Source of the DNA: Schoenoplectus triqueter
Taxonomy: Eukaryota > Streptophyta > Magnoliopsida > Poales > Cyperaceae
NCBI GenBank assembly: GCA_964058805.1
Contig: CAXKVV010000040.1
Span: 62,001 to 126,000 of the forward strand
Direction: 5' to 3'
DNA: 64,000 nucleotides
Each line of letters begins with the position of its first letter. Position 1 is the first letter of the stretch. The translations under genes and the position numbers were made by a program. The notes beneath the pieces are model-generated. The model did not search any database, was not told the origin of the DNA, and saw nothing but the letters and a program-made list of their open reading frames with translations. Of the stretch, positions 15,981 to 59,200 are shown piece after piece.

Positions 15981-16001
15981 TGATTTGGTGCAATAGTTTT
16001 T

Positions 16002-27300: not shown

Positions 27301-30300
27301 CAAGCATCATTGATATGTTGCTTCCCACCTTTTACTTTTATTTTACAAAATGCCTGCAGTAGTATTATACTTGTACTCTTTGCATATAGGTAGAGGGGGA
27401 ATATTGAGGTACATCTTTATAAAATATATGTATTAGTAGGTTTGATATTTTCTGCGCTTTGGAGGGTATATGTAATGTTCCTCATGATGGGGGGTTCTTT
27501 CCATTATTTTCATTTTAAAAAATTATAATTTTGATTTTTTTTTTAATTTGTCAGGGAATGCACTTTGTTGCCGTAACTCTTATCACAAGGTATGTGACCC
27601 GACTAATAATAAGTATTGTCCAAATGATGATTACTTTCTAAAATTTATTCGTCATGACATTATGTTCAGTTCACAACCAAAATATTAAGTAAAAAATAAA
27701 CTGTGGAGCCAGCATGTGACCTGTGGTATATTATGCTCTACAAAGAGGTGTTGGCATTGATTATTGACTATGAATCTTGTCTGCCATGAAACCAATCATA
27801 GATTGATCTTCTAACAGAGTGTTGAGAAGGTACCTGACGTCGGGATAGTTTAAGAAGATAATAAGATGAAGAAGAGAAACACTAGGAAGGAGAAAAGAAA
27901 CACTCAAACACAATTTTAATTTTCAAAGTATGCCTTTCTTACAACAAGAGGGAAGTATAAATAGTAAAACCTGGTTACATTTTCTAGGCTGCTATTAAAG
28001 CAAAACTAATTAAAGCATTTAAAATAAAGAGAAAACCAAAGCATCACAATCAAATATGGTTGAATTCACACCCCTTGACCATCTGATTTCACAAGAAACG
28101 AAACACTCATTTTAATTACCGAAGCATCCAACTTAATTACAGAATTCATTAAATTCTGTTTCGAATTTTGTACCGTCATCATGCTCCCCTGGTTTGTTGA
28201 AGCTTGTCCTCAAGCTTGAATCATCACCATGATATTTATGAAGGTGACGCACATTAAAAATATTGGAGATATACATGTTGTCGGGAAGTTTGATGCGGTA
28301 CGCGTTGTCTCCAAATTTTTCCAAGACTTTGTATGGACCAAATTTTCGCCGAGTAAGCTTGTTGTATTGCCCTTGGGGATATCGTTCTTTAGAGAGATAA
28401 ACCCAAACAAGTTCTTCAACCTCGAATGAAACAAAACGCCTCTTTGCATCTACGCTTTTCTTTGACTCGCTCCTCGGCTGTTTTGGACTTTGCATTGGGA
28501 CTTGCAATGGGAATTAAGTCCAACAGACCTTTTGGTGTAGCGCCATACATGATGTAGAACGGTGAGAAATCGGTCGAACGGTTCACCGAACAGTTGTATT
28601 CAAACTCAATTTTCGGAAGTAAGACGTCCCATGTGCCAAAGGATGTCACTTGTGCACGAAGCATGTTACCTAAGCTCCGGTTGACCGCTTCGGTTTGTCC
28701 GTCAGTCTGCGAGTGGCAAGTAGTGCTAAACTTGAGCTCGGTACCAAGGCGATTCCACAACTCTTTCCAAAATATGCTCATGAATTTAACATCTCGGTCA
28801 TAAACTATGGAACTCGGTAGTCCCCGATGGCGCACCACTTCGATGAAAAACAATTCTGCCACTTTGCTAGCATCCAAGGTTGTCTTGCATGGTATAAAAG
28901 TTGTCATTTTACTGAAACGGTCGACAACTACATAGACACTATCATGCTTTTTGCGGGTCAGTGGTAGACCCACAACGAAGTCCATTGAAATGTCTTGCCA
29001 TGGTTTGGTTGGAATGGGCAATGGCACATACAATCCTTGGTTGGTGTCGGTGTCTTTGGCGGTTTGACAGATTTGGCAACGCTTCACGAAATTCTTGATG
29101 TCCTTGTACATGCCCGGCTAATAAAAACGCTCCTTAATGAGTTGGAGGGTCTTCTCGAACCCGAAGTGACCTTGTGTGTGCAACTCACGGATAATTAGAA
29201 ATCGCAATGATGTTTGCGGGATGCAAAAAGCCTTGTCTCGGAAAAGAAAACCATCACAAAGGATGTAATCATCTCGCTTCTGTTGTTCGACTTCATTAAT
29301 GATGGTCCCGAAATCTGAATCTTGTTGAAGAGTTTGGGGTAGCTCCTCGAAACCAAGAGTTAATGCTTTCATTTAGGCGAGTAGAGAGTGACGACGACTC
29401 AGAGTATCAGCTACTTTGTTATTTGTGCATGACTTGTGTACAATGGAGAAAGTGTACTCCTGTAAAGCCGAGACCCACTTGGCATGCCGGTCACTGAGTT
29501 TGCTTTGTTCATGCAAGAATTTAAGAGCTTGATGGTCGGTGTATAGTACAAACTCACGGTGAAGTAGGTAATGTCTCCAATGCTCGAGTGCTTTGACTAC
29601 TGCATATAGCTCAAGGTCATACACCGGGTATTTGACTCGCGAACCTCCAAGTTTTTCGCTGAAGTAGGCCACAGGCTTCTTCTCTTGGGAAAGGACAGCT
29701 CCGATGCCCACTCGGGATGCATCGCAATCAAGCTCAAACATCTTGTCAAAGTTGGGAAGAGCGAGCACGGGCGCTTGAGTAAGCAACACTTTTAACTTCT
29801 CAAAAGCTTGGTTGGCCTCTAGGTTCCATTCAAAAGAATTTTTCTTCAAGAGTTCAGTGATGGGAGCGGTAATGTTACTAAAATTCTTGATGAAACGTCG
29901 GTAAAAACCTGCGAGACCAAGGAAGGATCGGACTTCGGTCACGATTGTCGGTGTTGGCCATTTTTGGATCGCTTTTATTTTGTCGGTGTCGGGGCAGATA
30001 CCGTCAGCAGCTATAACGAAGCCCAAAAAAACTAGCTTGTCAGTCATCCAAATGCACTTCTTGGGGTTGACATAGAGACTATTCTGGCGAAGTGTTTGAA
30101 GGACCTGTCGCACGTGATCCACATGTTCCTCTTTATTGCGACTATAGATGAGTATGTCGTCGAAATAGACAACCACAAACTTGTTAAGAAACGACCGCAA
30201 TACTTGGTTCATGATGCGCATGAAAGTGCTTGGCGCATTAGATAGTCCGAACGGCATGACAAGCCATTCAAACAGTCCTTTTGTTTTGAACGCCGTCTTC

Positions 30301-33300
30301 CATTCATCACCCGGTTTGACTCGGATTTGATGATAACCGCTCTTCAAATCAACTTTTGAGAAAATAGTGGCACCGCTCAAACTGTCAAGCATGTCTTCTA
30401 AGCGAGGGATCGGGAACCGATATTTGACGGTAATTCGGTTGACGGCCCAACTATCAACACACATCCGGAAAGACCCATCTTTCTTCGGGACGAGAAGGGC
30501 AGGTACGGCGCAAGGGCTTATACTTTCTCACACAAAGCCTTTGTTCAGGAGTTCCTCGACTTGTCGCCTCAATTCTTCGTGATGTTGCGGTGTCATGCGA
30601 TAATGAGCCTTGTTGGGGAGGCTAGCACCTGGCACCAAGTCGATTTGATGCTGGATATCTCGAAGAGGTGACAGTCCTTCGGGAAGATCATCAGGTATTA
30701 CGTCTTGGAACTCCGTGAGAACTGTTGTAATCGAACTGATTGGTTTTTCGACTGTCTCAGTATGTGCAAAAGTCGTGGAGATCAAGGCATAACACATACC
30801 GAATTCCTTCATGTCAAACTCGAACTCATCTTGTGGCACACAAAGTTTTGTTGTAGCCTCTTTTGTCACATTCTTTTGAATAGGTGTTAAAAGAACCTTT
30901 TTGTGGCCTTGTCGGATTGTGTAGGTGTGCTCTCTTCCGTCATATACGGCATGGTTGTCGAATTGTCAAGGTCGACCTAGAATGATATGTGATGCATCCA
31001 TAGGCACGATGTCCGCTCGAATAGTTGTTGAGTAGTTAGGCCCGATAGAGAAAGCAATTTGACACCTCTTGTCGACTCGGATTTCGACTTCTCGGCTGAC
31101 CCATCCGAGTTTGTAGGGGTGCGGGTGGGGCGTCGTGGTCAAATTGAGTTTTTCGATCGTTTCTTCGGACACCATATTTTCCCAGCTTCCCGAGTCTATT
31201 ATGATGTTGCACTTTTTATTGCCAACAATGCAATTCGTCTTGAAAATAGTGTGTCGCTTCCAGTTTTCTTTTGTTGGTGGAGAGTAGCACAGACGCCTTG
31301 TTACAAAACTCTCGTCTTCAACATCTTCAGGGTCGGCTTGACAAAATTTCTCGTCGAAAGCCACAACAAACTCATCATTTACTTCCTCATTTTCATCTTC
31401 TTCTTCTTTGCTAATCAAACTGGGTTTAGGTTTTGGACATTCACGAGCATAGTGACCCATGGCTCGACAATTATGGCATCGGATGTTTGCTTTGTTGAAA
31501 TTGGAAATGGTGTTTGGTGGTGTCGGTAGAAGAGCAGGTTGTCGGGTAGGTTGCGAAGAAGAGGAGGAGGCGTGGTTGTTGGGTTTCAGGACTGTTTTTG
31601 GAATTTGCGAAGTAGTTTGGGATTGTAAGTTACCTCGGGGTGGTTAATAACTTCGAAAACGTGATTGTTGTTGTTCCACAGCTTTGACTTTGGCTTGTGC
31701 TTCTGACACATTATAGAATGTGTGAGCCACGAGAGCGTCTTGGATGGACAACTTGAGACCTGAAATATAGCGAGCAATTCTTTGATCCTCGGTCTCATTG
31801 AGGTGGTTGCGTGTCTCGAGCTTGTAAAAATCGTAGGTGTATTCATCCACACTACGGTTTCCTTGATTAAGTGCTTGTAACTGCCGATACATAGTTTGCC
31901 TATAGTTTAGCGGCAGAAACTCACGCGTCATCTCGCGCTTCAAATCATCCCACCGATTGATAGGCGGAATGTAGTCGTAGCAGCGTCACATTTTAAAATT
32001 TTGCCACCATACGGCAACTCTCTCCTTGAAACGAATAGTCAGCAAAGGTACTTGTTTGTCGGAAGGAATTTCCTTCAACTCGAAAATTTCTTCAACGGTG
32101 TTGCACCAATCCAAAAATTCATCGGGATTAAGGCTACCCGAAAATTCTGGGATGTCGACTCGCAAGCCTCCTTCCCATCGGTTTTCGCGAACGGGATTTG
32201 GGTTGGGTGGTGGAAGTTGATTGTTATGAGGTGGAGTGAATGGAGGGGTGGCGGCGGTGACTGAGGGTTTGGAGTGATACGGTTGATTAGTTGGGTGAGT
32301 AGCTCCATAGTTTACGCATGTTGCTGCTGTTGGTGCTCGAACATTTCGCGAAGGGTCGGTTCATCAGCCATTTGATTTGGAGTAGGGAGCTTCCGCAGAC
32401 CTTGCTCTGATACCAATTGACGTCGGGATAGTTTAAGAAGATAATAAGAGGAAGAAGAGAAACACTAGGAAGTAGAAAAGAAACACTCAAACACAATTTT
32501 AATTTTCAAAGTATGTCTTTCTTACAACAAGAGGGAAGTATAAATAGTAAAACCTGGTTACATTTTCTAGGCTGCTATTAAAGCAAAACTAATTAAAGCA
32601 TTTAAAATAAAGAGAAAACCAAAGCATCACAATCAAATATGGTTGAATTCACACCCCTTGACCATCTGATTTCACAAGAAACGAAACACCCATTTTAATT
32701 ACCGAAGCATCCAACTTAATTACAGAATTCATTAAATTTTGTTTCGAATTCTGTACCGTCATCAGTACCGTTGATTGGCTAAAGTCAGTTTCATCCTTTA
32801 TAGACTAGTTTAGCCTTTGGTTCTTGCAATCAGCACCTGCATTTGCAATATTGAATAGAGGTGTGCAATGCATGTTTAAACAGAGTATTCAAAGGATGTG
32901 GCCAAATGAAGGTGAAGCTGCCATTGATAGGAGAACAATTACTTTTAACTTTGTTTCTGTTACCAATCTGCATTGCTGTGTCTGTTTGGTGGGCCGTAAG
33001 TCAGGACTCTCCGAATGCCTTTGTCGGCCAAGACATTATGGTAATCTCTCTCTCTCTCAAAACCTAAAATAAATTTCACAATTGATGCAAAATGTGTATC
33101 ATTCTCTCATTCATGTTCTCTATTTCTAACAACAGTTCTTGTATTTGAAATTGCAGGGCATCTGTTTGCTAATAACTGTATTGCAATTAGCCCAATTGCC
33201 TAATGCCATGGTAATTTAACTTTTCATACTTGTTTATGTTTTAATATTTTCTTTCTTTTTATTTTAGATATATAACTTAAATGGTCCTTACATGAGGTGA

Positions 33301-36125: not shown

Positions 36126-38017
<1,892 letters not shown>

Positions 38018-39836: not shown

Positions 39837-40864
39837 TCATTTGACTTCTTTTCCATGGACTCCTTTTTTTGCCAGAAAAAGGTCAGTGAGTACATTCTTT
39901 GACAACAATGATGTCTTTAGAAGCTCCCAACCCTAATTAAATTGACAAAATAAGTAGTTAATATCCGCAAATCGAGATATTCTATTAAAAAATGAACTCA
40001 AACAATTCCTACCTATATAATGTGATATCAGCACAACTTCTATAGAACAAGCAATTCTTTTGAACTGGCCTATGAATAAATAGATAGATGACCTTTTCAT
40101 TTTTTTCTTCTCACATCAAGTGCAGTACAAAAAGCAAAATAATTTGGTCTCACATATTAAACGTCTTGGCTACCTATAAAACTATAAACAACAACAATAA
40201 CATTTAGAGTGAGAGAGAGAGAGAAACCGATCACCTCTTGGAAATCCAGGTGGACAGTTTTTTGTTCAAGCAAGCTTAAATCCTTGTACCCCATTTTGTC
40301 AATAAGCATGATACTGGTTAAAGGCGTCATAGGCACCACAGTTAGATCATCCGTCACAAAATAAGTCAATCCATCTTTTACATACCCATTTGTCTCTACC
40401 TGCTCTTTTGTGACACTGAGACCGACATATGATAATTTTAAATCCATAAAATGCATACTATTGGAGCTTTTGCAAGTACCAGCCCTAGACACATCGGTGA
40501 AGTAAGGGCAATTGTTATGGCATGTGTAGACAACCTCTTTTGCAGAAGCCAAATGTGCATGCGAGAAGAGCAGGGCTGAATTGGAGGAAGGTGCAGATGG
40601 AATGATGTTGGGGATAAGAAGAGTCGACTTCATTTTAGTTGAGAAGAGGAAGTTGTCATCGAGCTGGTGCCAGCTGCTGTAGGTGTTGCGTAAGGGCCCC
40701 AGCATGGATTCGTCAGTTATTTGTTTAATCACTGATCCAAGGGGTAGAGACAAGAGACTGAAGAGGAAATCGACCACATCTTTGCCCACCTCGGCAAACA
40801 AAACCTTCTGGGTTGTTTTATCTATCAGAAGCTTCAGACTCAGCTTGCGGTTGCTGCTAGCCAT
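39837..40864 (-). CDS. DUF674 family protein (two exons)
   Basis: Exon 1 runs 40864-40235 (210 codons) and exon 2 39932-39837 (31 residues plus TGA), with a 302-bp intron bounded by GT and AG in phase 0. The result is 241 residues. It is a clear paralogue of the gene at 18.0-18.9 kb: KLLIDKTTQKVLFAEVGKDV, LLSLPLGSVIKQI, VETNGYVKDGLTYFVTDDLT, MTPLTSIMLIDKMG, and exon 2 GWELLKTSLLSKNVLTDLFL. The intron sits at the same codon as in the paralogue. The acidic tail of the first gene is absent here (ends HGKEVK). It belongs to the plant-specific DUF674 family, whose function is not established. It is the third DUF674 locus on the minus strand in 23 kb. Confidence 0.92.
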
Positions 40865-44158: not shown

Positions 44159-44873
44159 AGGCAGATTTACAAGGAGATATAGTGTCTTCTGTGCTGCAAA
44201 TGATGCTACGGTGCTTTAAATGGGGTGATTTGAGAATAAATGGAGTTGATTATGTGCCATCTGGAATCGTGGTTGGTATCATATTAGAGAGTTCAGGTGG
44301 CTCAAGTGCTCATGGAAATGGAGAAGATTACTGGGACAAACATTTCGTGAGGGCTTGACATTGTGAGTCAAGAAGTACTCTTCAATTTTGTACCTTCCTT
44401 ATATATTTCATTGAATGTGCAGAGGAGATGGTTGCTAGTTTTATGTTCTTTAAATATTTTTATTTCTTGGGTGAACTTAATAGACTGCAAATAACTTGGT
44501 TGCCTTCCAAACCAACAAACAAGTGTTACTAATACATAGGATTGTTTTAACCCTTTTTAGAAGAGGGAGCAATTATATACCATCATTATAAATTATGTTA
44601 TCACAAAGTAATATTTTTCTTTTCTCTTGGGTTTCAGAATTGTGTAATATGTGAGCAAACACATGGGGCATGTACTCGTTGTTTCATGTGTTCGACTTAT
44701 TATCACGCCATATTTGCATTGAGAGCTGGATATCACATGGAGGTATATATCATATTTTCATTATTATTTTCATCTTTATGTTGATCTTGAGTATTTGCAG
44801 CAGCTGAATATTTTATCAGGCAGTGCCAAATATGTGGCTGGTCTACTGTATTTTCCATATAATAGTATTATCT

Positions 44874-44918
44874 CCCCCCCCCCCCCCTTTGGGGTTACTT
44901 GGAGGGGGGGGGGGGGGT
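44874..44918. repeat. poly-C / poly-G foldback
   Basis: About 14 C, a 16-base spacer containing GGGG, then about 15 G, in an intron of the ATX-like pseudogene. It can fold as a hairpin or as G-quadruplex/i-motif. It may also be an assembly artefact of opposing homopolymers. Confidence 0.9.
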
Positions 44919-46448
44919 ATTATAGAATCTAGTATCATAAATATTAGCATTAGCATTATTTTGTGAGCAAAGATTCATGCTGAATGTTTTACTTTCCATC
45001 TTTTACTCGTTTATATTATTTTATTTTTGACTTTGATATATTTGCTGCTATTCAGGTGCCCTACTTAAGCTGGCATGGAAGGCTGACAACGCAACCTCAG
45101 TCATATGTTCAAATCACAAGTAGTCATCTGTTTTGTTATAACTGATTGACACATAATGTGCTAAAGTTGTTGTCTAATGGTTTAATTTCCCTGCAGGCAC
45201 ACTGCTTCAAATGCCGGACTGGTTGAGATTGATCGGAAAAAAGAAGAGATCTCTTCTAGTCCAGAATTACCATGCAACAGAGAGAGGTTGAGAACCAATT
45301 ATGTCGTGACAGATTTAGCGTTGACACGCTTTGAGGGTTCTTGTGCAAGATCCCGTGTTTATCAAAAGGGAGTCAAAAAGGTATGTATTGATTATTATTT
45401 TTATGGATATGGAAATTATTTCTGTATCTGATGACAAGTTTATATTCTTTATACTTGGAATGAATTCGTTGCTGAGTGCAAACTTTCCTTGTGCATAACA
45501 AATCAATATAATTATGGTCACAGTTGGATATTTTCTGGCATGTTTTTTACTATAAATGTTGTGGTTATTTTTGAGAAATGCATACTGCTAGGATACTTCT
45601 ATAAGTCTGTTTGAGCTGTCAAAAGATAGGGAGGTACACTTGGGGTGCTGCAACCTAGTATAAATAGGAGTGAAAATAAATCTACATAACAGCCACTTTT
45701 CAATTTCCCATTCCCAAATCAGAAAGAGAGGGGAGGAGTTTACACCAGAAGATTTGTCAATTTAGATGAGTCTTACCTCTGTACCTGGATCGGAATGGAG
45801 CCGTACTGGTATTAGCACACATAATTATGTGGTATTAACCAGTGCAGTACTAAAATCTGAGACTAAGCGCTGGATCCTAGCATATGACAGATAGGGTTTA
45901 CCTTTTCCAGGGGCATTTTGTAAATGAGATAGTATTAGCTTAGCTAAGTGTGTTTTACATCTTCCTTTCTATCTATTTCATGTAAACTCTCTTCTTATTT
46001 TTCATTAATAAAATGACTAGTAGGCAATTCGCCTACTACAAAAAAAAATATGACCATGAATTAGTTCTATAGCTCAGTCTGGCAAAATCCCTTTCATGTC
46101 TTTCATTAGTTATCATCTTTAATTTCAGGCAAGAGAAGAGTCAGATGTTCACCTCTTTATGGGGGCCCGTCAGGGACAAACTCCAGTAAATTTCTGCCCT
46201 TGATTATTTTTTTGTTTTGTTTTGCACTCTTTTACATTTGATGTGTATCTATGTGTTTGCTTGAGCCCTGTTAAATTGTATGACTTACAGCGTGAGGAGC
46301 ATGTGGAAGCTAGTAATCAGTGTACCAGAACCATGGCATATGAATCAGGGTTTAGGGGTAGTGGATAGGCATTTGGAAGGCTTTTGTTTCGAGATTAAGG
46401 ACATAGCGTTTAGAATTGAAGCTCATATGATCTACAGTTAAGGCATAT

Positions 46449-46560
46449 TATCATTATTGCTATTATTGTTGTTGTTGTTACTACCACCACTACCACCACT
46501 ACCACTACTTTTTCATTTATTATTACCATTAGTACTAGTACTATTGTTATTATTTATTAC
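46449..46560. repeat. compound trinucleotide microsatellite
   Basis: Runs of ATT/TTG, then ACC/ACT (TACCACCACTACCACCAC), then ATT/TAG triplets. Intronic, no coding role. Confidence 0.9.
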
Positions 46561-47314
46561 TATCTTTTTTTATGACTCTGGTTGGGTTTTATTTCCAACC
46601 TACCCAACTTGTTTGTTGTAACAGTGTGAGCAGCACCCGGTCGCTTTCCCCACAGTTAAGGAGCGTCTCCAGCTCCTGAAGGTGATCCTTTTATTACTTT
46701 TTTGGTACTTTTCTGAATATTTTGCATCATATATTCTTATTTATTTTGTTGGTTTGATGTATTACAGAAAAATGAAAATCACAAAATATGCCTCGGCGAA
46801 TCAGGCATACATGGCTGGGGGCTCTTTGCTCGTAGGGCCATTGAAGAAGGAGAATGGGTACAATTTATTTCTTTCTTTCTTGAATAATAAATAGCAAGCT
46901 TTTTACAAAACATTTAATAGCATTAATGGATGATCATTTTATATGGTATAATATTAAACAGATATAAGGACCATTAAATCTTGATACTGGGATTTTTATT
47001 AAGATCTGTTTTCTTAGTATTAAGAGGTCATAATAAAACAAGTTATACACTTGATCATAACAAATGAGAACAACCACAAAACAACAAAATAAACATTTTA
47101 GAAGTATAGTGCAGTTTACTAGTTCTTTAATTTGTTCAATATTACAAGATTTTGAACTTAGCAGTTCAATACAACATTATCAAAAGAGAAGATCAGCCTT
47201 AAGAAATATAATGGAGTTAATCAGGTTTGATTTCAGATCATAAATGATTAATAATGTTAAAAACAGATTTACAAAATGTTGGTGAATCTAAAAACCGATT
47301 CATTAGTGTGTTAA

Positions 47315-47747
47315 TGCTACGAATTATAGTTCAAATAAACAGAACTGGAAGAAAGAGGAGAAAAAAAAATAGAAATGAGAGAGGAATAATTTGCTAACTG
47401 GAGCTCACAAGCATCCATTTCATTATCAAATTTCACACACGGTCTTTACAATCACTCCTTTCTTTATATAGAGGATTCAAATAAGTAAATTGTAGTAAAC
47501 ACAGTTCAGTAAAACTAATTATTCCATAATAGCCAGCTGTGATGTAACAAACTGACAGTATAACAAACTAAGGAATCTCTACTTGCCCACACTTATTCAA
47601 TTCCCTTCATGCTGGCCCACATGTCATACTCTATTTTTAAAATATGCTTCTGCCCCGCGCCTTTGCCCGTTCTGCCCAGCTGCGCTTCTTTCTCCTTCTT
47701 CTCTTTCAGCTTAACGGTCACCCCAATTTCCCCAATCTCTCGTCGCA
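47315..47747 (-). repeat. 3' LTR of the chromovirus
   Basis: 433 bp with TG...CA termini, identical to the other LTR by eye. Its inner 155 bp (47593-47747) also encodes the last 51 residues of the polyprotein. Confidence 0.96.
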
Positions 47748-50700
47748 TTGCCCTCTCCTCCACAAAATTCGTGCCCACACGAATAAACTCCGGAAATTGC
47801 TGCGCAAAGCTGTCATAGTCCTCCCAAGTAGCTTCGTCAGTAGTTTGATTTTGCCACTGAACTAACCACTGAACTTGAGCCACATTATTCCGAGGAACAA
47901 TGCGACGACCCAATACCAATTGCGGCAGTAGAGTGTGAGGGTGGGTAGCACCACCAAGAGGTAGAGATGGCGAAGGAATGTGTTGCTGTCCCAATTTCTT
48001 CTTCAATTGGGACACGTGGAAAACGGAATGGATGAGTGATCCTGGTGGTAAGTTCAACTCATATGCTACAGCCCCAATTCTCCTGGTAATCTCGAAAGGT
48101 CCATAGTATTTTGAGCTAAGTTTATGATTATGCGTACCTTGCACAGTCACTTGGCGATATGGTTGTAGTTTTAAGTAGACCCAGTCACCAACATTGAACA
48201 CCCTCTCACTTCTATGTTTATCTTCATTCCTCCTCATGCGTTCTTGAGCTTTAGTCAAATTGGCTTTTAACTGTAAGAGTGTGGTCTGCCTGTCGCGGAG
48301 GAATTCATTCACCCCTTCAACTGAGCTGCGAGGGACACTACCCAGACCCAAAATTGGAGGAGGATAACCATATAATGCCTCAAATGGTGTGGTTTGCAAG
48401 GCACTGTGCCAAGAGGAATTGTACCACCATTCTGCAAGAGAGAGGTAAGAAGCCCACTGATTGCATTTATCAAATACCATGGCTCTGAGAAACTGCTCCA
48501 GACATTGATTAACCTTCTCTGTCTGGCCATCTGTTTGGGGATGGTATGCTGTGCTCATATTCAACTTAATTCCCAGTTTAGAGAGTAATTCCTTCCAGAA
48601 TCTGCTGGTAAATACAGGGTCTCTATCTGAGACAATAGAATGAGGTAGACCATGTAATTTGTAAACATAATCCATATAAGCTTGAGCCACAGTTGTTGCA
48701 GTGTAAGGATGTGTTAAGCCAATGAAATGAGCAAATTTGGTAAATCTGTCCATAACCACAAAAATCACTTGAAAGCCTTTGGACTTTGGTAAACCAGTTA
48801 CAAAATCCATGCCAACACTGGACCAAGCTCCATTGGGGATGGGTAAAGGTTGGATAAGGCCTGGAGAGGCTATGTGTTCACCTTTGTTCAACTGACAGTT
48901 GTCACAGTGTTGGACAAAGGAATGAATAGCATCTTTGAGTAAAGGCCAGTAAAAGGACCTCTTTACCCTGTGGTATGTAGCAGTAATTCCTGAGTGACCT
49001 CCCTGAGGAGAAGAATGGAGCTCATATAATAATTGATTTCTCAATTGGCCCCCAGAACCTACACAAATTCTGCCCTTGTATCTGAGAATACCAGAAGGCT
49101 CTAAAGTGATGTGAGGAACAGGAGGAGCATGAACCAATTTATGTTGTATACCTTCAATCCAAGGGTCCCCATCATAGCTCTGAATGACTTGCTGCATCCA
49201 TTGTGGGTAAAGTTCACTGACAGTGAGGATAGTTTGGTGAGAGGAGTCCAAATCATCCATTCTGGACAGTGCATCAGCTACTTTATTTTCACTCCCTTTT
49301 TTGTACTCAATCTTGTAGTTTAACCCTAAAAGCTTGCTTAATCCCCTATGCTGCATGGGTGTGTTGATCCGTTGCTCCAGTAGATATTTCAAGCTGATCT
49401 GGTCAGTTCTGATGATGAATTCCGTGCCAAGTAGGTAATGCCTCCATTTAGTGATAGCTGTGTAGAGAGCAAGCAACTCCCTTTCATAGGTGGACAGTGA
49501 TTGGTTCTTTGGACCCAACTTCTTACTCATGAAGGCTATAGGTCTCTGAGATTGCATAAGCACTGCCCCAATTCCACCAATGCTAGCATCAGACTCTACC
49601 ACAAAAGGTTCATTGAAATTAGGTAATTTGAGGACTGGAGCATTGGACATGGCCTCTTTGAGGTGGTTGAATGAAGTGGTAGCTTCTGGTGTCCAATGAA
49701 AGCTATTCTTCTTCAATAAATCAGTTAAAGGCTTTGCAATCATACCATAGTATCTGACAAATTTTCTATAGTATCCAGTGAGCCCCAAAAAACCTCTTAA
49801 TGCCTTAACTGACTTAGGAATTGGCCATTGAACCATGGCCTGAATTTTAGCAGGGTCAGTAGCTACCCCTTCCTTGGAGATTAAATGGCCCAGATACTCA
49901 ATCTGATGAACACCAAAAGAGCACTTGGAGAGTTTCACAAAGAGCTGGTTGGAACATAGTAGTTGTAATACTAATTTGAGATGAACCTGATGTGTTGGTA
50001 AATCCTTACTATATATCAAGATATCATCAAAGAATACTATTACAAACTTCCTGAGATAGGGTTTGAACACAGTATTCATCAGGGATTGAAATGTGGCAGG
50101 AGCATTAGTGAGGCCAAAGGGCATCACTAAGAATTCAAATAGGCCATCTTGAGTTTGAAATGCAGTTTTATGGATATCCTCTTGTTTCATTCTTATCTGG
50201 TGATAACCAGATCTTAAATCAAGTTTGGTGAAGTAATCCATACCTTCTAACTCATCCAACAAATCATCAATCAAAGGAATGGGAAACCTTGTTTTGACTG
50301 TGGCATCATTCAGTTGTCTGTAGTCTACACAAAGTCTCCAGGATGAATCCTTTTTTCTCACCAGCAAAACTGGAGAAGAAAAACTGCTTGTACTGGGTTG
50401 AATGAAACCTCTCTGGAGAAGATCATTTACTATCTTGTCCATTTCAATTTTCTGATAATGTGAAAATCTGTAGGGTCTGATGTTGATGGGTTTGGTATCA
50501 GGTGTGAGCATGATTCTGTGATCAACCACTCTTTGTGGAGGCAAACCTGAGGGTTCTTGAAAGACAGAAGGAAAGAGGTCAATGACAGACTGTAAAGCAG
50601 AAGGAATGAGAGGGGTGTTGAGAGTTTCTTCTTCCAACTGAAATAACTGTGCAATGTAGACCTGATTACCCTTCTTGGTTTCCTTGTGAGCATTGAGCTT

Positions 50701-52305
50701 ATTAGTCACTAGAATCTCAGGTTGAGAAGATGTGGTGCACAATTTGACATCCTTGTCACCTTGTTTTATGACCAAAATGCCCTTTTGTAAATTTAGTCTG
50801 ACTTCACCTAGAGTTGCTATCCAATCACAACCCAGAACTATATCATAGCCTGGTATTGAAAGGATTCTGAGATCAGCCTCAAAGGAATGGTTAGCAATAG
50901 AAAATTTCACCTTGGGACATATGGCATCAGTAGATAATTTCTCTCCACTTGCACTTCTAAAGATCTTAACAGGTTTAGGAACCTTGAGTAGGTGCAAGTG
51001 GTTGACAATTGTTGGACTGACAAAGCTATGTGTTGCTCCAGTATCAATGAGAACACAAACCTTGGTAGGACCCACTTGACCCTGATACTTGAGAGTTTGA
51101 ACTGCATCCACACCAGCAACACCACTGAGTGTTATTAACCCTGCTTCTGTAGTAGCATCAACTAGGTGGTCTGGAGGCTCTTCTGGTTGCTCTTCTTGCA
51201 AATGTAAACCTTCAAAATTGACATCTTCTTCAATAGTGTGAATACCACCTTTAGAGCACTTGTGACCAGGGACAAAGTTTTTCTTGCACTTGAAGCATAA
51301 TTTCAAAGCCCTCATCTCATCATAGGTTAAATTTTGTTTAGAGTAATCAGGTTGGGAGTTGTTAGCTTTGAAGATGGAAGCAGGGGTATTGGTGGGAATT
51401 GGAGACTTAAATGTGGATGTAAGGTCTGGAGGTTTGTAGGATTTATAAGTGGTTGGAGTAGTAGTTTTAGCCGGATGGAAAGTAGGTGTTGGAGTTGATT
51501 GAAAGAGGGAGAGAGATTTGGTGTTGGAGTTGATTGAAAGAGGAGTGAGTGCTGCCTCAATTTCTAAGGCAGTGTCAAAAGTTTCATTGAGGGTTTTTGG
51601 CTTGAACAGTGTAATGGATTTTTGAATATCAGGTTTGAGCTTAGAGATGAAACTCCATATCATGAAAAAGTCGGATCTAATATTAGTTTGCACTATCAAT
51701 CTGGCCTTGACTTTCTCAAACTCCCTGATCAATTCAGCTACTGTTCCATCATGAGATAGTTGCATGAACTGAATAACTGGATTGAGATGAGTTCTGGTTT
51801 TAAATCGGTCAAACACAGCTTCAATTAGTTGTAGCCATGATAAGATGGGGTTCTCTAACCTGAAGCAACTATACCAATCAGCAGCTTCCTCAACAAAACA
51901 TCGAGAAGCCATTTGAACCTTGTATCTTTCAGGGGTATTGTAATAGTCAAAATAGAAATTACAATTTTCTAACCAATCAACCGGTTTAGATCCATCAAAA
52001 TCGGCTAGATCCAATTTAGGTAGCATAACCCTATGGTGAAATTCCTGACCTGGAGCATCCTGATGGAAACTAGAAGAATTGTCACCATGAGGACTAACGT
52101 TGTTAGAACTATGACCTTGATTGTTACCGGTTTTCATGGAGGTAGTGAGTTGCTCGATGGATAGCATGAGTGCCTTCAAGCGTTCATCCTGCATCTTAGT
52201 CGAAGCAATCATAGCTTCATCTCTATTTTGCATATCGGTCGTGAGCTGATCGAGGCGGTCATGAAGAACTGCTAGTTCATCATCAGATCTAGTTCTGGGA
52301 GGCAT
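47593..52305 (-). CDS. intact gag-pol polyprotein with chromodomain, 1570 aa
   Basis: Starts at ATG 52305 (MPPRTRSDDELAVLHDRL), 60 bp inside the 5' LTR and 44 bp after the PBS. Domains by approximate residue: coiled coil 10-60; gag capsid 90-260 (KLDLADFDGSKPVDWLENC); CCHC-like knuckle near 340 (CFKCKKNFVPGHKC); protease near 420 (LIDTGATHSFVS); RT 600-780 with the catalytic FFDDILIYS near 758; RNase H near 903 (ESDASIGGIGAVLM); integrase zinc finger near 1133 (HCDNCQLNK) and catalytic core 1166-1290 (DFVTGLPKSKG, AYHPQTDGQTEKVNQ); chromodomain 1470-1510 (VQWLVQWQNQTTDEATWEDY). Residues 1520-1570 are encoded in the 3' LTR, and the polypurine tract lies in coding sequence. No stop or frameshift is present, and active-site residues of PR, RT, RH and INT are in place. 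The chromodomain would guide integration to chromatin marks, as in other chromoviruses. Confidence 0.97.
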   Translation of the reverse strand: MPPRTRSDDELAVLHDRLDQLTTDMQNRDEAMIASTKMQDERLKALMLSIEQLTTSMKTGNNQGHSSNNVSPHGDNSSSFHQDAPGQEFHHRVMLPKLDLADFDGSKPVDWLENCNFYFDYYNTPERYKVQMASRCFVEEAADWYSCFRLENPILSWLQLIEAVFDRFKTRTHLNPVIQFMQLSHDGTVAELIREFEKVKARLIVQTNIRSDFFMIWSFISKLKPDIQKSITLFKPKTLNETFDTALEIEAALTPLSINSNTKSLSLFQSTPTPTFHPAKTTTPTTYKSYKPPDLTSTFKSPIPTNTPASIFKANNSQPDYSKQNLTYDEMRALKLCFKCKKNFVPGHKCSKGGIHTIEEDVNFEGLHLQEEQPEEPPDHLVDATTEAGLITLSGVAGVDAVQTLKYQGQVGPTKVCVLIDTGATHSFVSPTIVNHLHLLKVPKPVKIFRSASGEKLSTDAICPKVKFSIANHSFEADLRILSIPGYDIVLGCDWIATLGEVRLNLQKGILVIKQGDKDVKLCTTSSQPEILVTNKLNAHKETKKGNQVYIAQLFQLEEETLNTPLIPSALQSVIDLFPSVFQEPSGLPPQRVVDHRIMLTPDTKPINIRPYRFSHYQKIEMDKIVNDLLQRGFIQPSTSSFSSPVLLVRKKDSSWRLCVDYRQLNDATVKTRFPIPLIDDLLDELEGMDYFTKLDLRSGYHQIRMKQEDIHKTAFQTQDGLFEFLVMPFGLTNAPATFQSLMNTVFKPYLRKFVIVFFDDILIYSKDLPTHQVHLKLVLQLLCSNQLFVKLSKCSFGVHQIEYLGHLISKEGVATDPAKIQAMVQWPIPKSVKALRGFLGLTGYYRKFVRYYGMIAKPLTDLLKKNSFHWTPEATTSFNHLKEAMSNAPVLKLPNFNEPFVVESDASIGGIGAVLMQSQRPIAFMSKKLGPKNQSLSTYERELLALYTAITKWRHYLLGTEFIIRTDQISLKYLLEQRINTPMQHRGLSKLLGLNYKIEYKKGSENKVADALSRMDDLDSSHQTILTVSELYPQWMQQVIQSYDGDPWIEGIQHKLVHAPPVPHITLEPSGILRYKGRICVGSGGQLRNQLLYELHSSPQGGHSGITATYHRVKRSFYWPLLKDAIHSFVQHCDNCQLNKGEHIASPGLIQPLPIPNGAWSSVGMDFVTGLPKSKGFQVIFVVMDRFTKFAHFIGLTHPYTATTVAQAYMDYVYKLHGLPHSIVSDRDPVFTSRFWKELLSKLGIKLNMSTAYHPQTDGQTEKVNQCLEQFLRAMVFDKCNQWASYLSLAEWWYNSSWHSALQTTPFEALYGYPPPILGLGSVPRSSVEGVNEFLRDRQTTLLQLKANLTKAQERMRRNEDKHRSERVFNVGDWVYLKLQPYRQVTVQGTHNHKLSSKYYGPFEITRRIGAVAYELNLPPGSLIHSVFHVSQLKKKLGQQHIPSPSLPLGGATHPHTLLPQLVLGRRIVPRNNVAQVQWLVQWQNQTTDEATWEDYDSFAQQFPEFIRVGTNFVEERAMRREIGEIGVTVKLKEKKEKEAQLGRTGKGAGQKHILKIEYDMWASMKGIE
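47748..47761 (-). other. polypurine tract inside the polyprotein gene
   Basis: Minus-strand GGAGGAGAGGGCAA adjoins the 3' LTR and is at the same time codons for VEERA-type residues near position 1515. It primes plus-strand DNA in this class of elements. Confidence 0.75.
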
Positions 52306-52348
52306 GATGTGGAAACGAAAATTGATTTTCCCAGCTGCAATCGCTAGG

Positions 52349-52360
52349 GCTCTGATACCA
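52349..52360 (-). other. primer-binding site for initiator tRNA-Met (chromovirus)
   Basis: Minus-strand TGGTATCAGAGC, 4 bp from the 5' LTR. Confidence 0.93.
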
Positions 52361-52364
52361 CAAT

Positions 52365-52797
52365 TGCTACGAATTATAGTTCAAATAAACAGAACTGGAA
52401 GAAAGAGGAGAAAAAAAAATAGAAATGAGAGAGGAATAATTTGCTAACTGGAGCTCACAAGCATCCATTTCATTATCAAATTTCACACACGGTCTTTACA
52501 ATCACTCCTTTCTTTATATAGAGGATTCAAATAAGTAAATTGTAGTAAACACAGTTCAGTAAAACTAATTATTCCATAATAGCCAGCTGTGATGTAACAA
52601 ACTGACAGTATAACAAACTAAGGAATCTCTACTTGCCCACACTTATTCAATTCCCTTCATGCTGGCCCACATGTCATACTCTATTTTTAAAATATGCTTC
52701 TGCCCCGCGCCTTTGCCCGTTCTGCCCAGCTGCGCTTCTTTCTCCTTCTTCTCTTTCAGCTTAACGGTCACCCCAATTTCCCCAATCTCTCGTCGCA
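52365..52797 (-). repeat. 5' LTR of the chromovirus, with TATA box
   Basis: 433 bp. On the minus strand it contains TATATAAAGA (52520-52511), a good TATA box for the retrotransposon promoter. Identical to the 3' LTR as far as I can see. Confidence 0.95.
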
Positions 52798-52977
52798 GTT
52801 AATTTGCAAGTTTAATGGGTTTTCTTGAAAGCTTCGATACTAGTTCTTATTTGTCATTTATGTGTATCTGGAAAGTTCATTAGACAAATGATACCCTGTA
52901 ATTCCTTTTTCAGAAAAGAAGAATTTTCCATCACCTGCAACTTATAACAAATTTAAATTTCCTAGGAGAAAAGGTAC

Positions 52978-53239
52978 TATTAACGTATATACAAATTACA
53001 GAACAAACAATTTCACAGATGTCACAGCAGATCCAGAGCGCATTCAAGAATAGAATTAGTTTCATTATGTAATAGATTAGATATTTAATCAAGATTCTGT
53101 TACAACATATTTAGCTGTTTCTAGAAGCCTCTTCTGTTAGGCGCTCCTCTATTGAGATCTATATATACATCTTCAGTATCTGTAAAACAATCAATCAATG
53201 AAATTTATTCTCCCAGTCTCTGTTCTCTCTGTTCTTATA
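52978..53239 (+). repeat. 5' LTR of the copia element
   Basis: 262 bp. Has a TATA-like CTATATATAC (53159-53168) and ends CTTATA directly before the PBS. Confidence 0.95.
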
Positions 53240-53250
53240 TGGTATCAGAC
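53240..53250 (+). other. primer-binding site of the copia element
   Basis: TGGTATCAGAC follows the LTR without a gap. It matches the initiator tRNA-Met complement for ten bases (TGGTATCAGA). Confidence 0.85.
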
Positions 53251-53320
53251 GCCAAAACGCTCCACAGCTTAAACAAGATCCGATAAGCCTTCTTCTCCAA
53301 AAATTCAACCATCCTCCACC

Positions 53321-54334
53321 ATGTCTATCTCTTCTCCAAACACTGAAGAGACTTCCGCCGCTGCTCAGTCAATTTCCTTCGACTCCATTACTCATGTCAA
53401 CACAACTATCCCCTCAAAACTCACCGAATCAAATTTCCTCTCCTGGAAAAGACAGATTCTTCTCATAGTAGAAGGTCATGCTCTTGACTCGTTCTTGCAC
53501 AAACCTCCACCAGATCCTTCCTCACAAAACACAGCAGGAGAAACTATTCTAAACCATCAGTACATTCTCTGGAAACGCCAGGATAAGCTGTTAAACGCAT
53601 GGATTTGCTCGTCTCTCTCAGACAGCATCTTGGCACAAGTTATGGATTCTCCAACCTGTAGAGATCTCTGGTTTAATCTTGCCAACTATTTCTCTTGTAA
53701 CTCTAGAGCAAGAATTCAAGATCTCAAAAGGCAATTGCAAAATGTTTCTAAAGGAAGCTTAAATTGCACTGATTACTTGACAAAGATCAAGCAGTTGGCC
53801 GATGAATTGGCCTTTATTGGGCATCCTTTGTCTGAAGATGAACTAGTTACAGCTGCTCTTCACGGATTGGGATCAGACTTCAGTTCTTTAAAAACCTCTA
53901 TTCTTACCTCAAGATGCCATACTAATTTCAACTTCTCCGATCTTAGAGGACTGCTTCTGTTCCATGAAACTGAGAACACCCCTTCTACTGAACCGTCAGC
54001 CTTTCATACTGGTAAATCAACTAAGAACAAGTATCAGTCCGCTAACAGCAAACCATTCTACGCAAATCAGAATAACTCTAAACCCAATTATAACAGCAAC
54101 CCGTCTACTGGATTCAACAACCCACAATCTTCCAATCATGATGCCATTCTTGCAAAGATTAACTCGGGTGAATTCAAAATACCTTGCCAAATCTGTTACA
54201 AGATGGGGCATCTTACCAGAAAGTGCTACAAGCGTTACAACAAGGACCCCGAGTGGAGAGCTCTCCTAAAATTCAATGCCTATCATACCACTGCACCTGA
54301 TGCTTCCTTTCAAAACCCTGATTCTAGCTATTGA
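53321..54334 (+). pseudogene. gag of the copia element
   Basis: ATG 53321 opens 337 codons: a retroelement N-terminal region (KLTESNFLSWKRQILLIVEG), the copia-type UBN2 capsid region (LWFNLANYFSCNSRARIQDL ... LKRQLQNVSKGSLNCTDYL) and a CCHC zinc knuckle (CQICYKMGHLTRKCYKR). It is ended at 54332 by a TGA where a Trp codon is normal for copia proteins (just before LLDSGAN), so gag is separated from pol by one nonsense codon. Confidence 0.9.
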
Positions 54335-57300
54335 CTCTTAGATTCGGGAGCAAATCAACATGTGACAAATGATATCAACCAACTCAACTCTTTTTGCTAC
54401 AAGGGTTCCGACAAGCTCAAAATAGGTAATGGTGATGGACTCTCTATTTCACACATCGGTTCTCAAGTATTTAAAGTTGGTGATTACACAATTAAATTGA
54501 ATAATGTTTTGTGTGTTCCTGAATTTTCCACTAATCTAATAAGCTTGTCTCAATTGCTTGTTGATAATCCATCTCTCCTTTAACTTTAATTCATTTTTTT
54601 GCTTGGTAAAGGACCATCTCCACACAATGATCCCTTCACTTCAAATCACTAGCAAAAATGGTCTATATACATTTAAGATGCTGCCTTCTTCTTCCAATTC
54701 TTCACCTTCTCAAGCTTTTTACTCCACTACTCCTTCCCGAGTTACAACATCCACTTGGCATGCTAGATTCGGTCATTGCTTCACTCCAACGACTTTGAAA
54801 ATTATCAATTCTAATAGTTTGCCATGTACTAGAACTCATTTTCAGTTTTGTAAAGATTGTATTCAAGCCAAGGCTCACACCTTGCCTTTTGCAAATTCTA
54901 CTTCTTCTTCTAAAGGTCCATTAGACCTAGTTCATAGTGATTTGTGGGGACCAAATCCAATTGTATCTCAAAAAGGTTATAAATATTATGTGATTTTTGT
55001 TGATGATTTTTCAAGATTCACTTGGATTTATTTTCTTAAGCAAAAATCTGATGTTCTACAAGCTTTCTCTCTATTTAAGTCTCAAGTGGAAAATTTATTA
55101 AACACAAACATTAAAGTATTGAGAACTGATGGAGGTGGAGAGTATAAACCGATCACTAAAACCTTTCCTCAAATTAAACATGAAACAAGTTGCCCTCACA
55201 CACCGCAACAGAACGGTGTGTCTGAGCGTAAACATCGTCATATAGTCGAATTATCACTTGCTACAATATCACATTCAGCACTACCTATAAGGTTTTGGGA
55301 TGAGATCTTTGCTAGCATAGTGTATTTGATTAATAGGCTACCGTCACAAAATTCTATCTCTTATAAAACACTTTTTAATAAAGAGGTTGATTATAATTTC
55401 TTGAGAGTATTGGGATGTCTTTGTTACCCTCTAACTCGACCTTACAATAAACACAAACTTGAGCTTCGAGCTTTGCCTTGTGTCTTCATGGGGTATGGCA
55501 TCAATCAAAAGGGATATAAATGTCTCCATATCCCAACTGGAAGAGTTTATATGTCACGAAATGTTCAATTTATTGAAGACGAGTTTCCCTTTGCATCACT
55601 CTCAAAGAATATTCAGATAACAGGATCCGTTGCAGAACAAACGACACCTCTTTCTATTCTCCAGTTGCCTCTCGGAAGAACAGAGCAAGGGGGCAACTTA
55701 ACAGACGCGAGCTCCATCTCAGCGCCACTGAATTCAAACTCAAATAACCAAGCCGAGCCCAACATCTCTTCGGCCCAACTCTCTGAGAATCCGAATCCAG
55801 CCCAACACGCCAAGGATCCGAATCCAACACTGATTCAATCTCCTCCACTCGTCTACAAGAGAAGGGTTTCGATTGTGCCACCTCAGCAAAATTCAAATTT
55901 AAATCCTGGAGCCAACGGTAACAGTACTGAACCCAACCCTTCTTCTTCCTCCAGCCGCACTGTTCAGGAATTACCACAAACACCTAATCTGAAACCTCCA
56001 TCCGATCAAAATGAACCTTCTCAACCAGCCCAACTTCAGATTCCATCATCTTCTCACCAAATGGTTACACGAACTAAAGATAGAACTTATAAAAAGCGAG
56101 TTTATCCTGAATTTGTGACTTACCATGTGCAAACCGACTCTGACCCGACAACCTTTGCACATGCATCAAAAACTGAGCACTGGAGAACTGCCATGGCAGA
56201 GGAGATTGATGCCCTCGCTCGAAACCAGACATGGACACTTGTTCCTCCCCCGAGCTCTCAACGTGTAATTGGGTGTAAATGAGTCTATAAAACCAAAAAG
56301 AAAGCTGATGGCTCCATTGATCGTTACAAAGCCCGTCTGGTTGCAAAAGGTTTTAATCAAGTTTCAGGCATCGATTTTGAAGAAACATACAGCCCTGTTG
56401 TGCGACCTACCACGATCAGGTTAACCCTTTCTATTGCTCTTACTTTTAATTGGCCCATACGCCAATTGGATGTCTCAAATGCTTTCTAAATGGTCACCTC
56501 CATGAAAGGGTATTTATGGCTCAACCACCTGGATTCATTGATAACACAAAACCAGATCATGTATGCCTTCTTCACAAATCTCTTTATGGCCTTCGTCAAG
56601 CTCCTCGTGCATGGTTTGAAAAACTTAGCTCTACCTTGATAAATTTTGGGTTTAAACCGTCAAGCTATGACCCATCTATGTTTATGGCACACCACCAAGG
56701 TCATATCTTAATCCTTTTGGTCTATGTGGATGATATTATTGTCACTGGGAGTGATTCTACACAAGTGGACCAATGTATCTTCCAATTAAACTCTCAATTT
56801 GCAATTCAAGACCTTGGTAACCTACATTATTTTCTTGGGCTGGAGGCTACTACTAATTCGGATGGAATATGCTTAACCCAAACTAAATATCTCACTGACC
56901 TTCTCAAAAGAGTCAATATGCTAGATTGTAAGCCTTGTTTATCTCCAATGACATCTGGAACTCAACTCTCATTCACTGCTTCCAATCCTTGCAAAGACCC
57001 TCATTTGTATAGAAGTGTGATAGGGGCGTTGCAATATGCAACTCTTACAAGACCCGATATATTTTTCACTGTCAATAAACTATCCCAGTATATGCACAAG
57101 CCAGTATATGCACAAGCCCTCTGAAGACCATTGGTCAGCAGCAAAAAGAGTTCTACGCTACCTTGCAGGGACTCTTGATTACGGTTTACAATTCTACAAA
57201 AATTCTTCTCTACAAATTCATGCATATTCCGACTCCGATTGGGCTGGAGATTCAATAGGCAGACGATCAACATCTGGATTTTGTGTTTATTTTGGTAGAA

Positions 57301-57692
57301 ACTTAATATCATGGTGTTCTAAAAAGTAACCTACGGTTTCGCGCTCTAGTATGGAGGCAGAATATCGTAGTTTGGCGCTATGCTACCAAGACGTAATGTG
57401 GCTGGAAAACCTGTTGAAAGAGTTGTGAATTTCCACTTCACATACTTCAATCCTATGGTGTGACAACATAGGTGCAACATTCTTGGCTTCAAACCCTCAA
57501 TTCCATACAAGAACAAAACACATTGAAATAGATTCCCACTTTGTTCGTGAAAGAGTTTGTTCAAAACAGTTACAAGTCAAATTTGTGTGTTCTCAGGATC
57601 AACTCGCATACTATCTTACAAAACCACTACCGCTGCCACATTTTAAGTATTTAAGAGGCAAGCTGCATGTGCTCCAGACCACATCCGCTTGA
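54335..57692 (+). pseudogene. pol of the copia element (PR-INT-RT-RH)
   Basis: Protease starts LLDSGANQHVTND. A frame change follows at about 54580. The integrase has the GAG-pre-integrase and zinc-finger HHCC part (HARFGH ... CKDCIQAK), core DLWGPNPIVSQKGYKYY and RTDGGGEY. It is ended by a TGA at 56280 in place of Trp before [12 protein letters not shown] follows with DVSNAF at about 56470 and a one-base deletion just after, then VYVDDIIVTGSD (catalytic). RNase H parts (YSDSDWAGD, STSGFCVYFG) and the end (KPLPLPHFKYLRGKLHV) run to 57692, with a stop at 57327 and a small duplication at 57091-57117 (CAGTATATGCACAAGC twice). Not functional. Confidence 0.9.
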
Positions 57693-59200
57693 GGGGGCAT
57701 ATTAACGTATATACAAATTACAGAACAAACAACTTCACAGATGTCACAGCAGATCCAGAGCGCATTCAAGAATAGAATTAGTTTCATTATGTAATAGATT
57801 AGATATTTAATCAAGATTCTGTTACAACATATTTAGCTGTTTCTAAAAACCTCTTCTGTTAGACGCTCCTCTATTGAGATCTATATATACATCTTCTGCA
57901 TCTGTAAAACAATCAATCAATGAAATTTATTCTCCCAGTCTCTGTTCTCTCTGTTCTTATAGGTACCATGCAATATCCTCTCTTTATGTAACTACTCGTC
58001 ACTGTATGTTTTCTGATTGCAGATCATTGAATATCTTGCCCATTACCGGTGATGCCAGAGAGGGCCACTACCAGAAAGACAAGAAAGATTGCTATGTGAG
58101 TTGACCTCTATATCTTCATTCCATACTTATGATAATTTCTCCGTATATTTGGGCTTAATAATCTTCTCTATTACTATATTTTGCCTTAGTTCTTCTAAGT
58201 CAGCAGTTAGGTAGTAATTGATGCCACCAAGAAAGGCAACTTAGCAATAATGTGGTATTTACAGGTCTAACTTCATGTGTTTTAACTAGAGATTTTTGTT
58301 TATTGGTGCAGTGCCAACCAAACTGCTTTGCAAGGAAACTGCATATGGGGGAGACAATCCGACTCGTGTTCTTAGCCAAGGAAAAGATCATTGCTGGTCA
58401 AGAGCTGACGTAAGTAGCACTTCGATTTTCTCCCTAGAGTTTTGTACTTCAGAAAGCAGTAGAAGTTAATTTTTACTAATTTGGAATATATTTTTCATGT
58501 ATGTGGACTTGACTATATGTTCAAAGTGGCAATGAATGAGGAAAATAGAGTGCCATGCTTGTAAAGTGGCCGATCTTCTCTCTGTATTAGGCATTTTATT
58601 CCCAATATTGATTTAGTTTTTCTTTTTTTAATTAACATTTTGTATCATTGTTTGTAATTCATAGACGCTTTGATGCTTGTAAGGTTTTATCAAAATTGTA
58701 ATTAACACTTAATGAAAATGTTTAATGTTGATCCTTCTTATGCATTGATTATGATTTATGAAAAACGTATCATTCTTATTGAGTTCTAGTAGCCTTAAAT
58801 TTGATTACAAGATACAACGAAAGAAGTTCGTCTTGCGATCTTATCCATGTAAACGTTGCCATTTATTTATGAGAAATTGGAGCGTTCGTACAGGCAATTT
58901 TATAGAAGTAAGAAAAATACCTTCCTTTCGATTTCCCCCCTTAAAAATCAAAATGTGCTTGCGGAGGTCTAAAATACTTGACGTCTTCATTTCTTCTACA
59001 ATGTTTTTTTGTTAAATTAATAATTCAATTTTTGTAGGATATTTTGTAGTAAATTAATAATTAGCTTTCTAATTTTACAATTCAAGAAATTATTTTCTTC
59101 ATTCCAAAATTTTATTATACTTTGGTAAATTTGCAAATTTAAGTATGGAAACTACGTTGCAAATTTAGATTGCCTGGAAGCTCCAATTATTGCAGTAATG

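What the first reader, a model, noticed from the sequence alone, without database searches (positions are those of the whole stretch)
47315..52797. Chromovirus with identical LTRs and a complete 1570-residue polyprotein
No difference between the two 433-bp LTRs, exact 5-bp duplication, PBS, PPT, TATA and every catalytic motif are intact. This is the best candidate in the window for a currently or very recently active mobile element, and its chromodomain makes it a targeted integrator.
Basis: partly seen in the sequence, partly recalled or inferred. Interest (0 to 1): 0.75.

Follow-up and report, generated by a model that had tools for sequence, protein, structure and literature searches.

The report
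Young intact plant LTR retrotransposon
This is a complete, recently inserted copy of a well-known kind of plant jumping gene (most likely a Reina-type chromovirus) in a sedge-like plant; it looks young and intact, but it is ordinary for its kind and nothing here shows that it still jumps.

Summary
On the minus strand lies a 5,483-bp Ty3/gypsy element with identical 433-bp LTRs, a 5-bp target duplication, tRNA-iMet-type primer site, polypurine tract, TATA box and one open 1570-aa Gag-Pol frame with its catalytic residues. Its anatomy matches published Reina-clade chromoviruses of beet: size, LTR length, chromodomain upstream of the polypurine tract, frame ending inside the 3' LTR. One host gene points to a sedge or close kin. 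Zero LTR differences mean an insertion probably younger than about 0.2-0.5 My, not proof of present activity. Searches of the held 82-Mb assembly showed no second copy, solo LTR or donor; the best other DNA match is 72%. That assembly may be incomplete. "Targeted integrator" is not supported: the chromodomain is group II (1 of 3 cage aromatics), and the element lies between two weak SET-domain matches of a likely decayed ATX-like gene. Four relatives examined here are also young (LTR identity 97.5-99.8%), as in beet. New member of a known kind; low interest.

The parts
47310..47314 (.). target-site duplication GTTAA (left)
47315..47747 (-). 3' LTR, 433 bp, identical to the 5' LTR
47593..47747 (-). 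part of the 3' LTR that is coding: the last about 51 residues of the polyprotein and its stop (155 bp)
47751..47761 (-). polypurine tract GGAGGAGAGGG, lying inside the ORF
47593..52305 (-). single Gag-Pol ORF, 1570 aa
51520..51936 (-). Gag capsid (Pfam Ty3_capsid, residues 124-262)
51256..51297 (-). CCHC zinc knuckle CFKCKKNFVPGHKC
50815..51063 (-). aspartic protease (RVP_2; LIDTG)
49885..50361 (-). reverse transcriptase (RVT_1; FFDD)
49411..49695 (-). RNase H (RT_RNaseH_2 match; D-E-D present in the RNase H region)
48895..49017 (-). integrase HHCC zinc motif
48538..48834 (-). integrase core (rve; D1167, D1227, E1263, D,D35E; E1263 lies just past the Pfam match)
47782..47916 (-). group II chromodomain, upstream of the polypurine tract
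52349..52360 (-). primer binding site TGGTATCAGAGC (tRNA-iMet type), 4-nt spacer from the 5' LTR
   Evidence: tRNA assignment recalled
52365..52797 (-). 5' LTR, 433 bp; TATA box at 52515-52520
52798..52802 (.). target-site duplication GTTAA (right)
44635..46866 (+). target locus, left part: PHD-like zinc finger (over Pfam's cut-off) and first SET piece (profile 1-19, below cut-off) of an ATX-like gene remnant
   Evidence: ATX identity recalled
58309..58410 (+). target locus, right part: last SET piece (profile 68-101, below cut-off)

Best explanation
A full-length, recently inserted, structurally autonomous Ty3/gypsy LTR retrotransposon of the chromovirus lineage, most likely the Reina clade, in a sedge or close relative. 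Life cycle (inferred from the family): the LTR promoter drives one RNA; a single Gag-Pol polyprotein is made and cut by its own protease; tRNA-iMet primes minus-strand and the polypurine tract plus-strand synthesis; reverse transcription gives both LTRs from one template, hence their identity; integrase makes a 5-bp staggered cut, hence GTTAA twice. Shown here: structure, catalytic residues, LTR identity, duplication, no other copy found in the held assembly. Inferred: competence to move, the Reina name, and the age (0 of 433 differences; 95% upper bound about 0.7% divergence, about 0.23-0.49 My at 1.5e-8 to 7e-9 per site per year).
For: Identical LTRs, duplication and full ORF. Pfam capsid, protease, RT, RNase H, integrase, SH3 and chromodomain in order. 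Catalytic residues. Group II chromodomain. Anatomy equal to beet Bingo/Reina elements: 5.26-5.81 kb, LTR 293-503 bp, 5-bp TSD, frame running into the 3' LTR in Bingo1-4 and 7, most recently inserted clade there (PMC3605345). In the RT-RNase H tree it lies in a 12-row starred set (96) of 5 sedge, 4 own-genome (itself included) and 3 unnamed rows. Host gene 36821-38017 is 87% identical to two Rhynchospora proteins and 71% to Juncus and Typha. Four related elements in the same genome have LTR identity 99.8, 97.9, 98.3 and 97.5% and 5-bp duplications; 3 of these 4 have a frame running into the 3' LTR.
Against: No labelled Reina reference sequence was in any call, so the clade name rests on anatomy and recall. 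The chromodomain scores 23.5 bits, under Pfam's cut-off of 25.1. No second copy was found that would support mobility directly. LTR collapse during assembly is untested. The LTR ends TGCGAC...GTAGCA differ from the TGTCAG...T(T/A)ACA type of the four relatives examined, so it is not a close copy of them.
Confidence: 0.95

Rival explanations
1. Fresh arrival: the family entered this lineage recently, for instance by horizontal transfer, and this is its only copy. (Not exclusive of the best explanation.)
For: No other copy or solo LTR found in the assembly; best other DNA match 72%, yet the LTRs are identical.
Against: The nearest listed protein is 72% identical over RT-RH (P0023, an unnamed protein from the JGI source) and sedge proteins reach 71%; it nests among sedge and own-genome lineages, so no foreign donor is indicated. 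Low-copy relatives in the same genome show a similar pattern. The assembly may be incomplete.
Confidence: 0.05
2. Currently active and steered by its chromodomain to heterochromatin. (Not exclusive of the best explanation.)
For: Intact ORF and identical LTRs; LORE1, a Reina-clade element, is active in Lotus, and group II chromodomain-YFP fusions go to heterochromatin (PMC2832683, passages).
Against: No RNA, circle or polymorphism data; single copy found; group II chromodomain with L-W-Q at the cage; target is a gene remnant; LORE1 shows no strong preference.
Confidence: 0.2
3. The LTR identity is an assembly artefact: the assembler used one LTR sequence for both ends.
For: Two identical 433-bp stretches 5 kb apart are easy to collapse; no reads available.
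Against: Only these two LTR copies were found in the assembly, with different flanks and a perfect duplication; four relatives were assembled with 1 to 11 LTR mismatches.
Confidence: 0.05

Closest known systems
Bingo1-7 (Reina clade), Beta vulgaris (PMC3605345; passages and sections 5 and 7 seen)
   Same: Length, LTR length, 5-bp duplication, tRNA-Met primer site, chromodomain upstream of the polypurine tract, ORF running into the 3' LTR (5 of the 7 Bingo families), very young LTRs, one or two full-length members listed per family
   Different: Host is a sedge-like monocot; PBS spacer 4 nt against up to 3; sequences not compared, as no Bingo sequence was available
LORE1 (Reina clade), Lotus japonicus (PMC2832683; passages seen)
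   Same: Chromovirus with group II chromodomain and a long ORF; about ten preexisting copies in the accession studied
   Different: LORE1 is proven active; nothing of that kind is known here
CRM clade, group A (PMC3059260; passages and figure legends seen)
   Same: ORF extends into the 3' LTR
   Different: There the LTR encodes the CR motif; here the chromodomain lies wholly upstream of the LTR and only a poorly conserved tail is LTR-encoded
Unnamed JGI-source protein P0023 and Rhynchospora/Carex polyproteins
   Same: Nearest proteins listed: 72% and up to 71% over residues 600-1000; P0023 is 68% over residues 1100-1570 and has a similar protein stretch around the polypurine tract
   Different: Well below any usual identity rule for one family

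Membership tests
LTR retrotransposon, Ty3/gypsy | two LTRs, TSD, PBS, PPT; order PR-RT-RH-INT | tested here: met
Chromovirus | chromodomain at the integrase C-terminus | tested here: met
   Pfam Chromo E 5.1e-5, 23.5 bits, below the cut-off of 25.1; PDB chromodomains, best E 9.5e-7
Reina clade | group II chromodomain upstream of the PPT | tested here: met
   (L-W-Q at the cage columns; HP1 letters recalled); chromodomain match ends at 47782, PPT starts at 47761. Shared with Tekay and Galadriel, so not diagnostic alone
Reina clade | small element, LTR about 0.3-0.5 kb, ORF often running into the 3' LTR | tested here: met
   5,483 bp, 433-bp LTR, 155-bp overlap; comparison with PMC3605345
Reina clade | RT-RH-INT phylogeny with reference Reina elements | not tested
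   no labelled reference sequence was available; no row of the tree bears a clade name
CRM clade | CR motif encoded downstream of the PPT in the LTR (group A) | tested here: not met
Group I (H3K9me-binding) chromodomain | three cage aromatics Y-W-Y | tested here: not met
   L-W-Q
Currently active element | new insertions, transcripts or extrachromosomal DNA | not testable with these tools
   no reads or individuals

The most novel reading that the evidence does not exclude
This family exists as a single, brand-new insertion with no donor in the genome, i.e. a fresh arrival (possibly horizontal), and its subclade has changed both LTR ends together (TGC...GCA instead of TGT...ACA), which would mark a switch in integrase end recognition.
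Probability: 0.05. Interest if true: 0.5.

Novelty: new member of a known kind. Interest (0 to 1): 0.15.

Why it matters
It adds an intact, young Reina-type element, single-copy as far as the assembly shows, in a sedge-like genome where several divergent lineages each seem to keep a few young copies. It is useful as a dated insertion marker and for comparing the chromoviruses of sedges, but it changes no idea about the group.

Tried and rejected
Foreign origin: the nearest listed relatives are sedge, own-genome and unnamed rows, none above 72% (in 29 and 54 only the best 120 are listed and only candidates sharing most words were scored); not supported. CRM membership because the ORF enters the LTR: rejected, since the chromodomain lies upstream of the PPT and the same overlap is published for Reina. 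Conserved function of the LTR-encoded tail: unsupported, since the tail differs in length and sequence between relatives. Empty-site allele in the assembly: none found; each flank has one full-length match, and the left flank also has one 56-base match at 82% on another contig. Relatives in IMG/VR: no match. Intact ATX paralogue: the one exon searched (45186-45428) matched only itself; inconclusive. A paper search on ORF-LTR overlap wording found 0; this says nothing about print, as one search shows it published. The first motif patterns missed the integrase HHCC, the RNase H aspartate and one RT motif; re-reading showed HHCC with wider spacing, ESDAS in place of TDAS and MPFGL in place of LPFG.

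Full report
What is there. The element runs on the minus strand from 52797 down to 47315 (5,483 bp). Its LTRs are identical, 433 of 433 bases, and are flanked by GTTAA on both sides. The frame 52305-47593 gives 1570 aa with one stop at its end. Pfam finds capsid, protease, RT, RNase H, integrase zinc domain, integrase core, SH3 domain and chromodomain in that order (the frame was scanned in three pieces). The residues needed for catalysis are there: LIDTG, RT D and FFDD, RNase H D-E-D, integrase HHCC and D1167, D1227, E1263 with 35 residues between the last two. The primer site, polypurine tract and TATA box are in place.

Host. The genome held for this window has 82.09 Mb in 2,086 contigs; the window is C39:62001-126000. 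One host gene in the window (36821-38017, PRISE family) was searched: among the listed hits it is 94% identical to an unnamed protein, 88% to another unnamed one, 87% to two Rhynchospora proteins, and 71% to Juncus, Typha and Ananas. The host is therefore probably a sedge or very near; this rests on one gene, supported by the sedge kinship of the retroelements. The Rpb2 family search found 6 matches on only 2 contigs, from 3 candidates scored. Four or more nuclear genes are expected (recalled), so the assembly may be incomplete, although introns also lower such counts.

Copies. The LTR as DNA query found only its own two places, 2 of 2 candidates. The RT-to-integrase DNA found 28 places, none but itself above 72% identity; the integrase end found 13, none but itself above 72%; gag-protease DNA found one other place, at 66%. 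By protein, 150 of 349 candidates were scored and all 150 matched: the ten best others are 63-71% identical, 4 of them with a stop inside the match. So the family appears single-copy in this assembly, with no donor and no solo LTR found. These searches skip very common words and score only the best candidates, and the assembly may be incomplete, so 'single copy' is provisional.

Relatives in the same genome. Four related elements were examined out of those found (C882, C568, C100, C583). Their LTR pairs are 99.8, 97.9, 98.3 and 97.5% identical. Their duplications read CAACC, ATAAT, GGTAC and TCATC, the second and fourth after setting the LTR end one base further in than BLAST did. In 3 of 4 a frame in the same register runs into the 3' LTR, with its stop codon starting at LTR position 90, 144 or 231 (153 in the window element); none was found for the fourth. 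LTR searches for three of them gave, beyond their own pair, one match at 97% (C606), one at 94% plus a partial one at 71%, and none; the fourth was not searched. The pattern is several divergent lineages, each low in copy and young. The beet Reina families look the same: the published table lists eight Bingo members of seven families with LTR divergence 0.23-1.80% (PMC3605345, section 5 read), and the paper says Reina elements inserted most recently (passage), although its one Galadriel element also has identical LTRs.

Place in the tree. RT-RNase H tree of 113 rows, quick method. Of the 120 listed hits, 22 were left out beforehand by hand (algal, animal and two grass rows) and 2 more for short or missing matches. 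Of 33 own-genome loci 9 gave no open segment long enough, and 8 of the remaining 24 were dropped as duplicates or presumed near-copies. The window pairs with P0023, an unnamed JGI-source protein at 72% (support 97), inside a 12-row set (support 96) of 5 sedge, 4 own-genome (window included) and 3 unnamed rows. Long branches are many, and no row bears a clade name. The tree shows kinship with sedge and own-genome lineages and gives no sign of a foreign source.

Clade. The anatomy fits Reina as described for beet: the chromodomain match ends at 47782, before the polypurine tract at 47761, unlike group A CRM elements, where the LTR encodes the CR motif (figure legend). No labelled Reina sequence was at hand, so the clade is probable, not proven.

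Chromodomain and target. Against HP1 (letters recalled) the three cage positions read L, W and Q; only the second aromatic is kept, which defines group II in the papers seen (passages, section 7). PMC2832683 (passages) states that group II domains do not bind H3K9me, though YFP fusions go to heterochromatin, and that new LORE1 insertions were frequently genic without strong preference. Here the left flank carries a PHD-like finger (30.3 bits, cut-off 27) and SET positions 1-19 (15.5 bits), and the right flank, beyond a copia element, carries SET positions 68-101 (18.0 bits); both SET matches are below Pfam's cut-off of 22.4. The middle of SET was not seen in the frames printed, and a zinc-ligand cysteine of the PHD part seems replaced (reading against ATX proteins is recalled), so this is likely a decayed ATX-like copy. 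A genic remnant is no evidence of targeting.

Age. With 0 of 433 differences the 95% upper bound is about 3/433 = 0.69% divergence; at 1.3e-8 and 7e-9 per site per year (recalled rates) that is 0.27 and 0.49 My; at about 1.5e-8, the rate implied by the beet table, about 0.23 My. 'Very recent' is fair; 'currently active' is not shown.

LTR ends. The window's LTR begins TGCGAC and ends GTAGCA, while the four relatives begin TGTCAG and end in TTACA or TAACA. The change at the third base is matched at both ends. P0023 has a similar protein stretch where the window's frame crosses the polypurine tract and LTR start; its DNA was not seen. This may mark a subclade difference in integrase end recognition; it is a lead only.

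Verdict. A clean, young, intact member of a known kind. Interest is low; the useful corrections are the group II chromodomain, the lack of any donor copy found, and the genic-remnant target.

Noticed in passing
52978-57961 (+): Copia element 175 bp from the chromovirus's right duplication; LTRs about 97.4% identical, ends read as TA...TA instead of TG...CA, apparent target duplication GGTAC.
   Followed up: partly
44600-58500 (+): ATX-like (PHD/SET) gene remnant split by both retroelements; the one exon searched has no paralogue match in the assembly.
   Followed up: partly
G000, many contigs: 48 places with the same RT score (108.8 bits, 35-36% to the query), many in open frames of 2,000-3,144 aa: a much larger gypsy family, perhaps near-identical copies (sequences not compared), and a better candidate for recent amplification. 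Lower bound: 150 of 349 candidates were scored.
   Followed up: no
G000 C2081, C101, C234, C413, C505 and others: A second group of Ty3/gypsy copies, 9 rows nearly identical over RT-RH in the tree (48% to the query), with open frames up to 1,622 aa.
   Followed up: no
27835-32764 (-): Another gypsy element in the window with 347-bp LTR-like repeats 98.3% identical and coding split over several frames.
   Followed up: no
15998-17164: Tandem array of about 58-bp units (from the offsets), 73-76% alike.
   Followed up: no
18158-18880 and 40157-40864 (-): Two DUF674 gene pieces sharing a stretch 80% identical, a duplicated locus.
   Followed up: no
G000 C39:154730-155196: A single LTR match, 94% like that of the C568 element, on the same contig as the window but outside it.
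   Followed up: no
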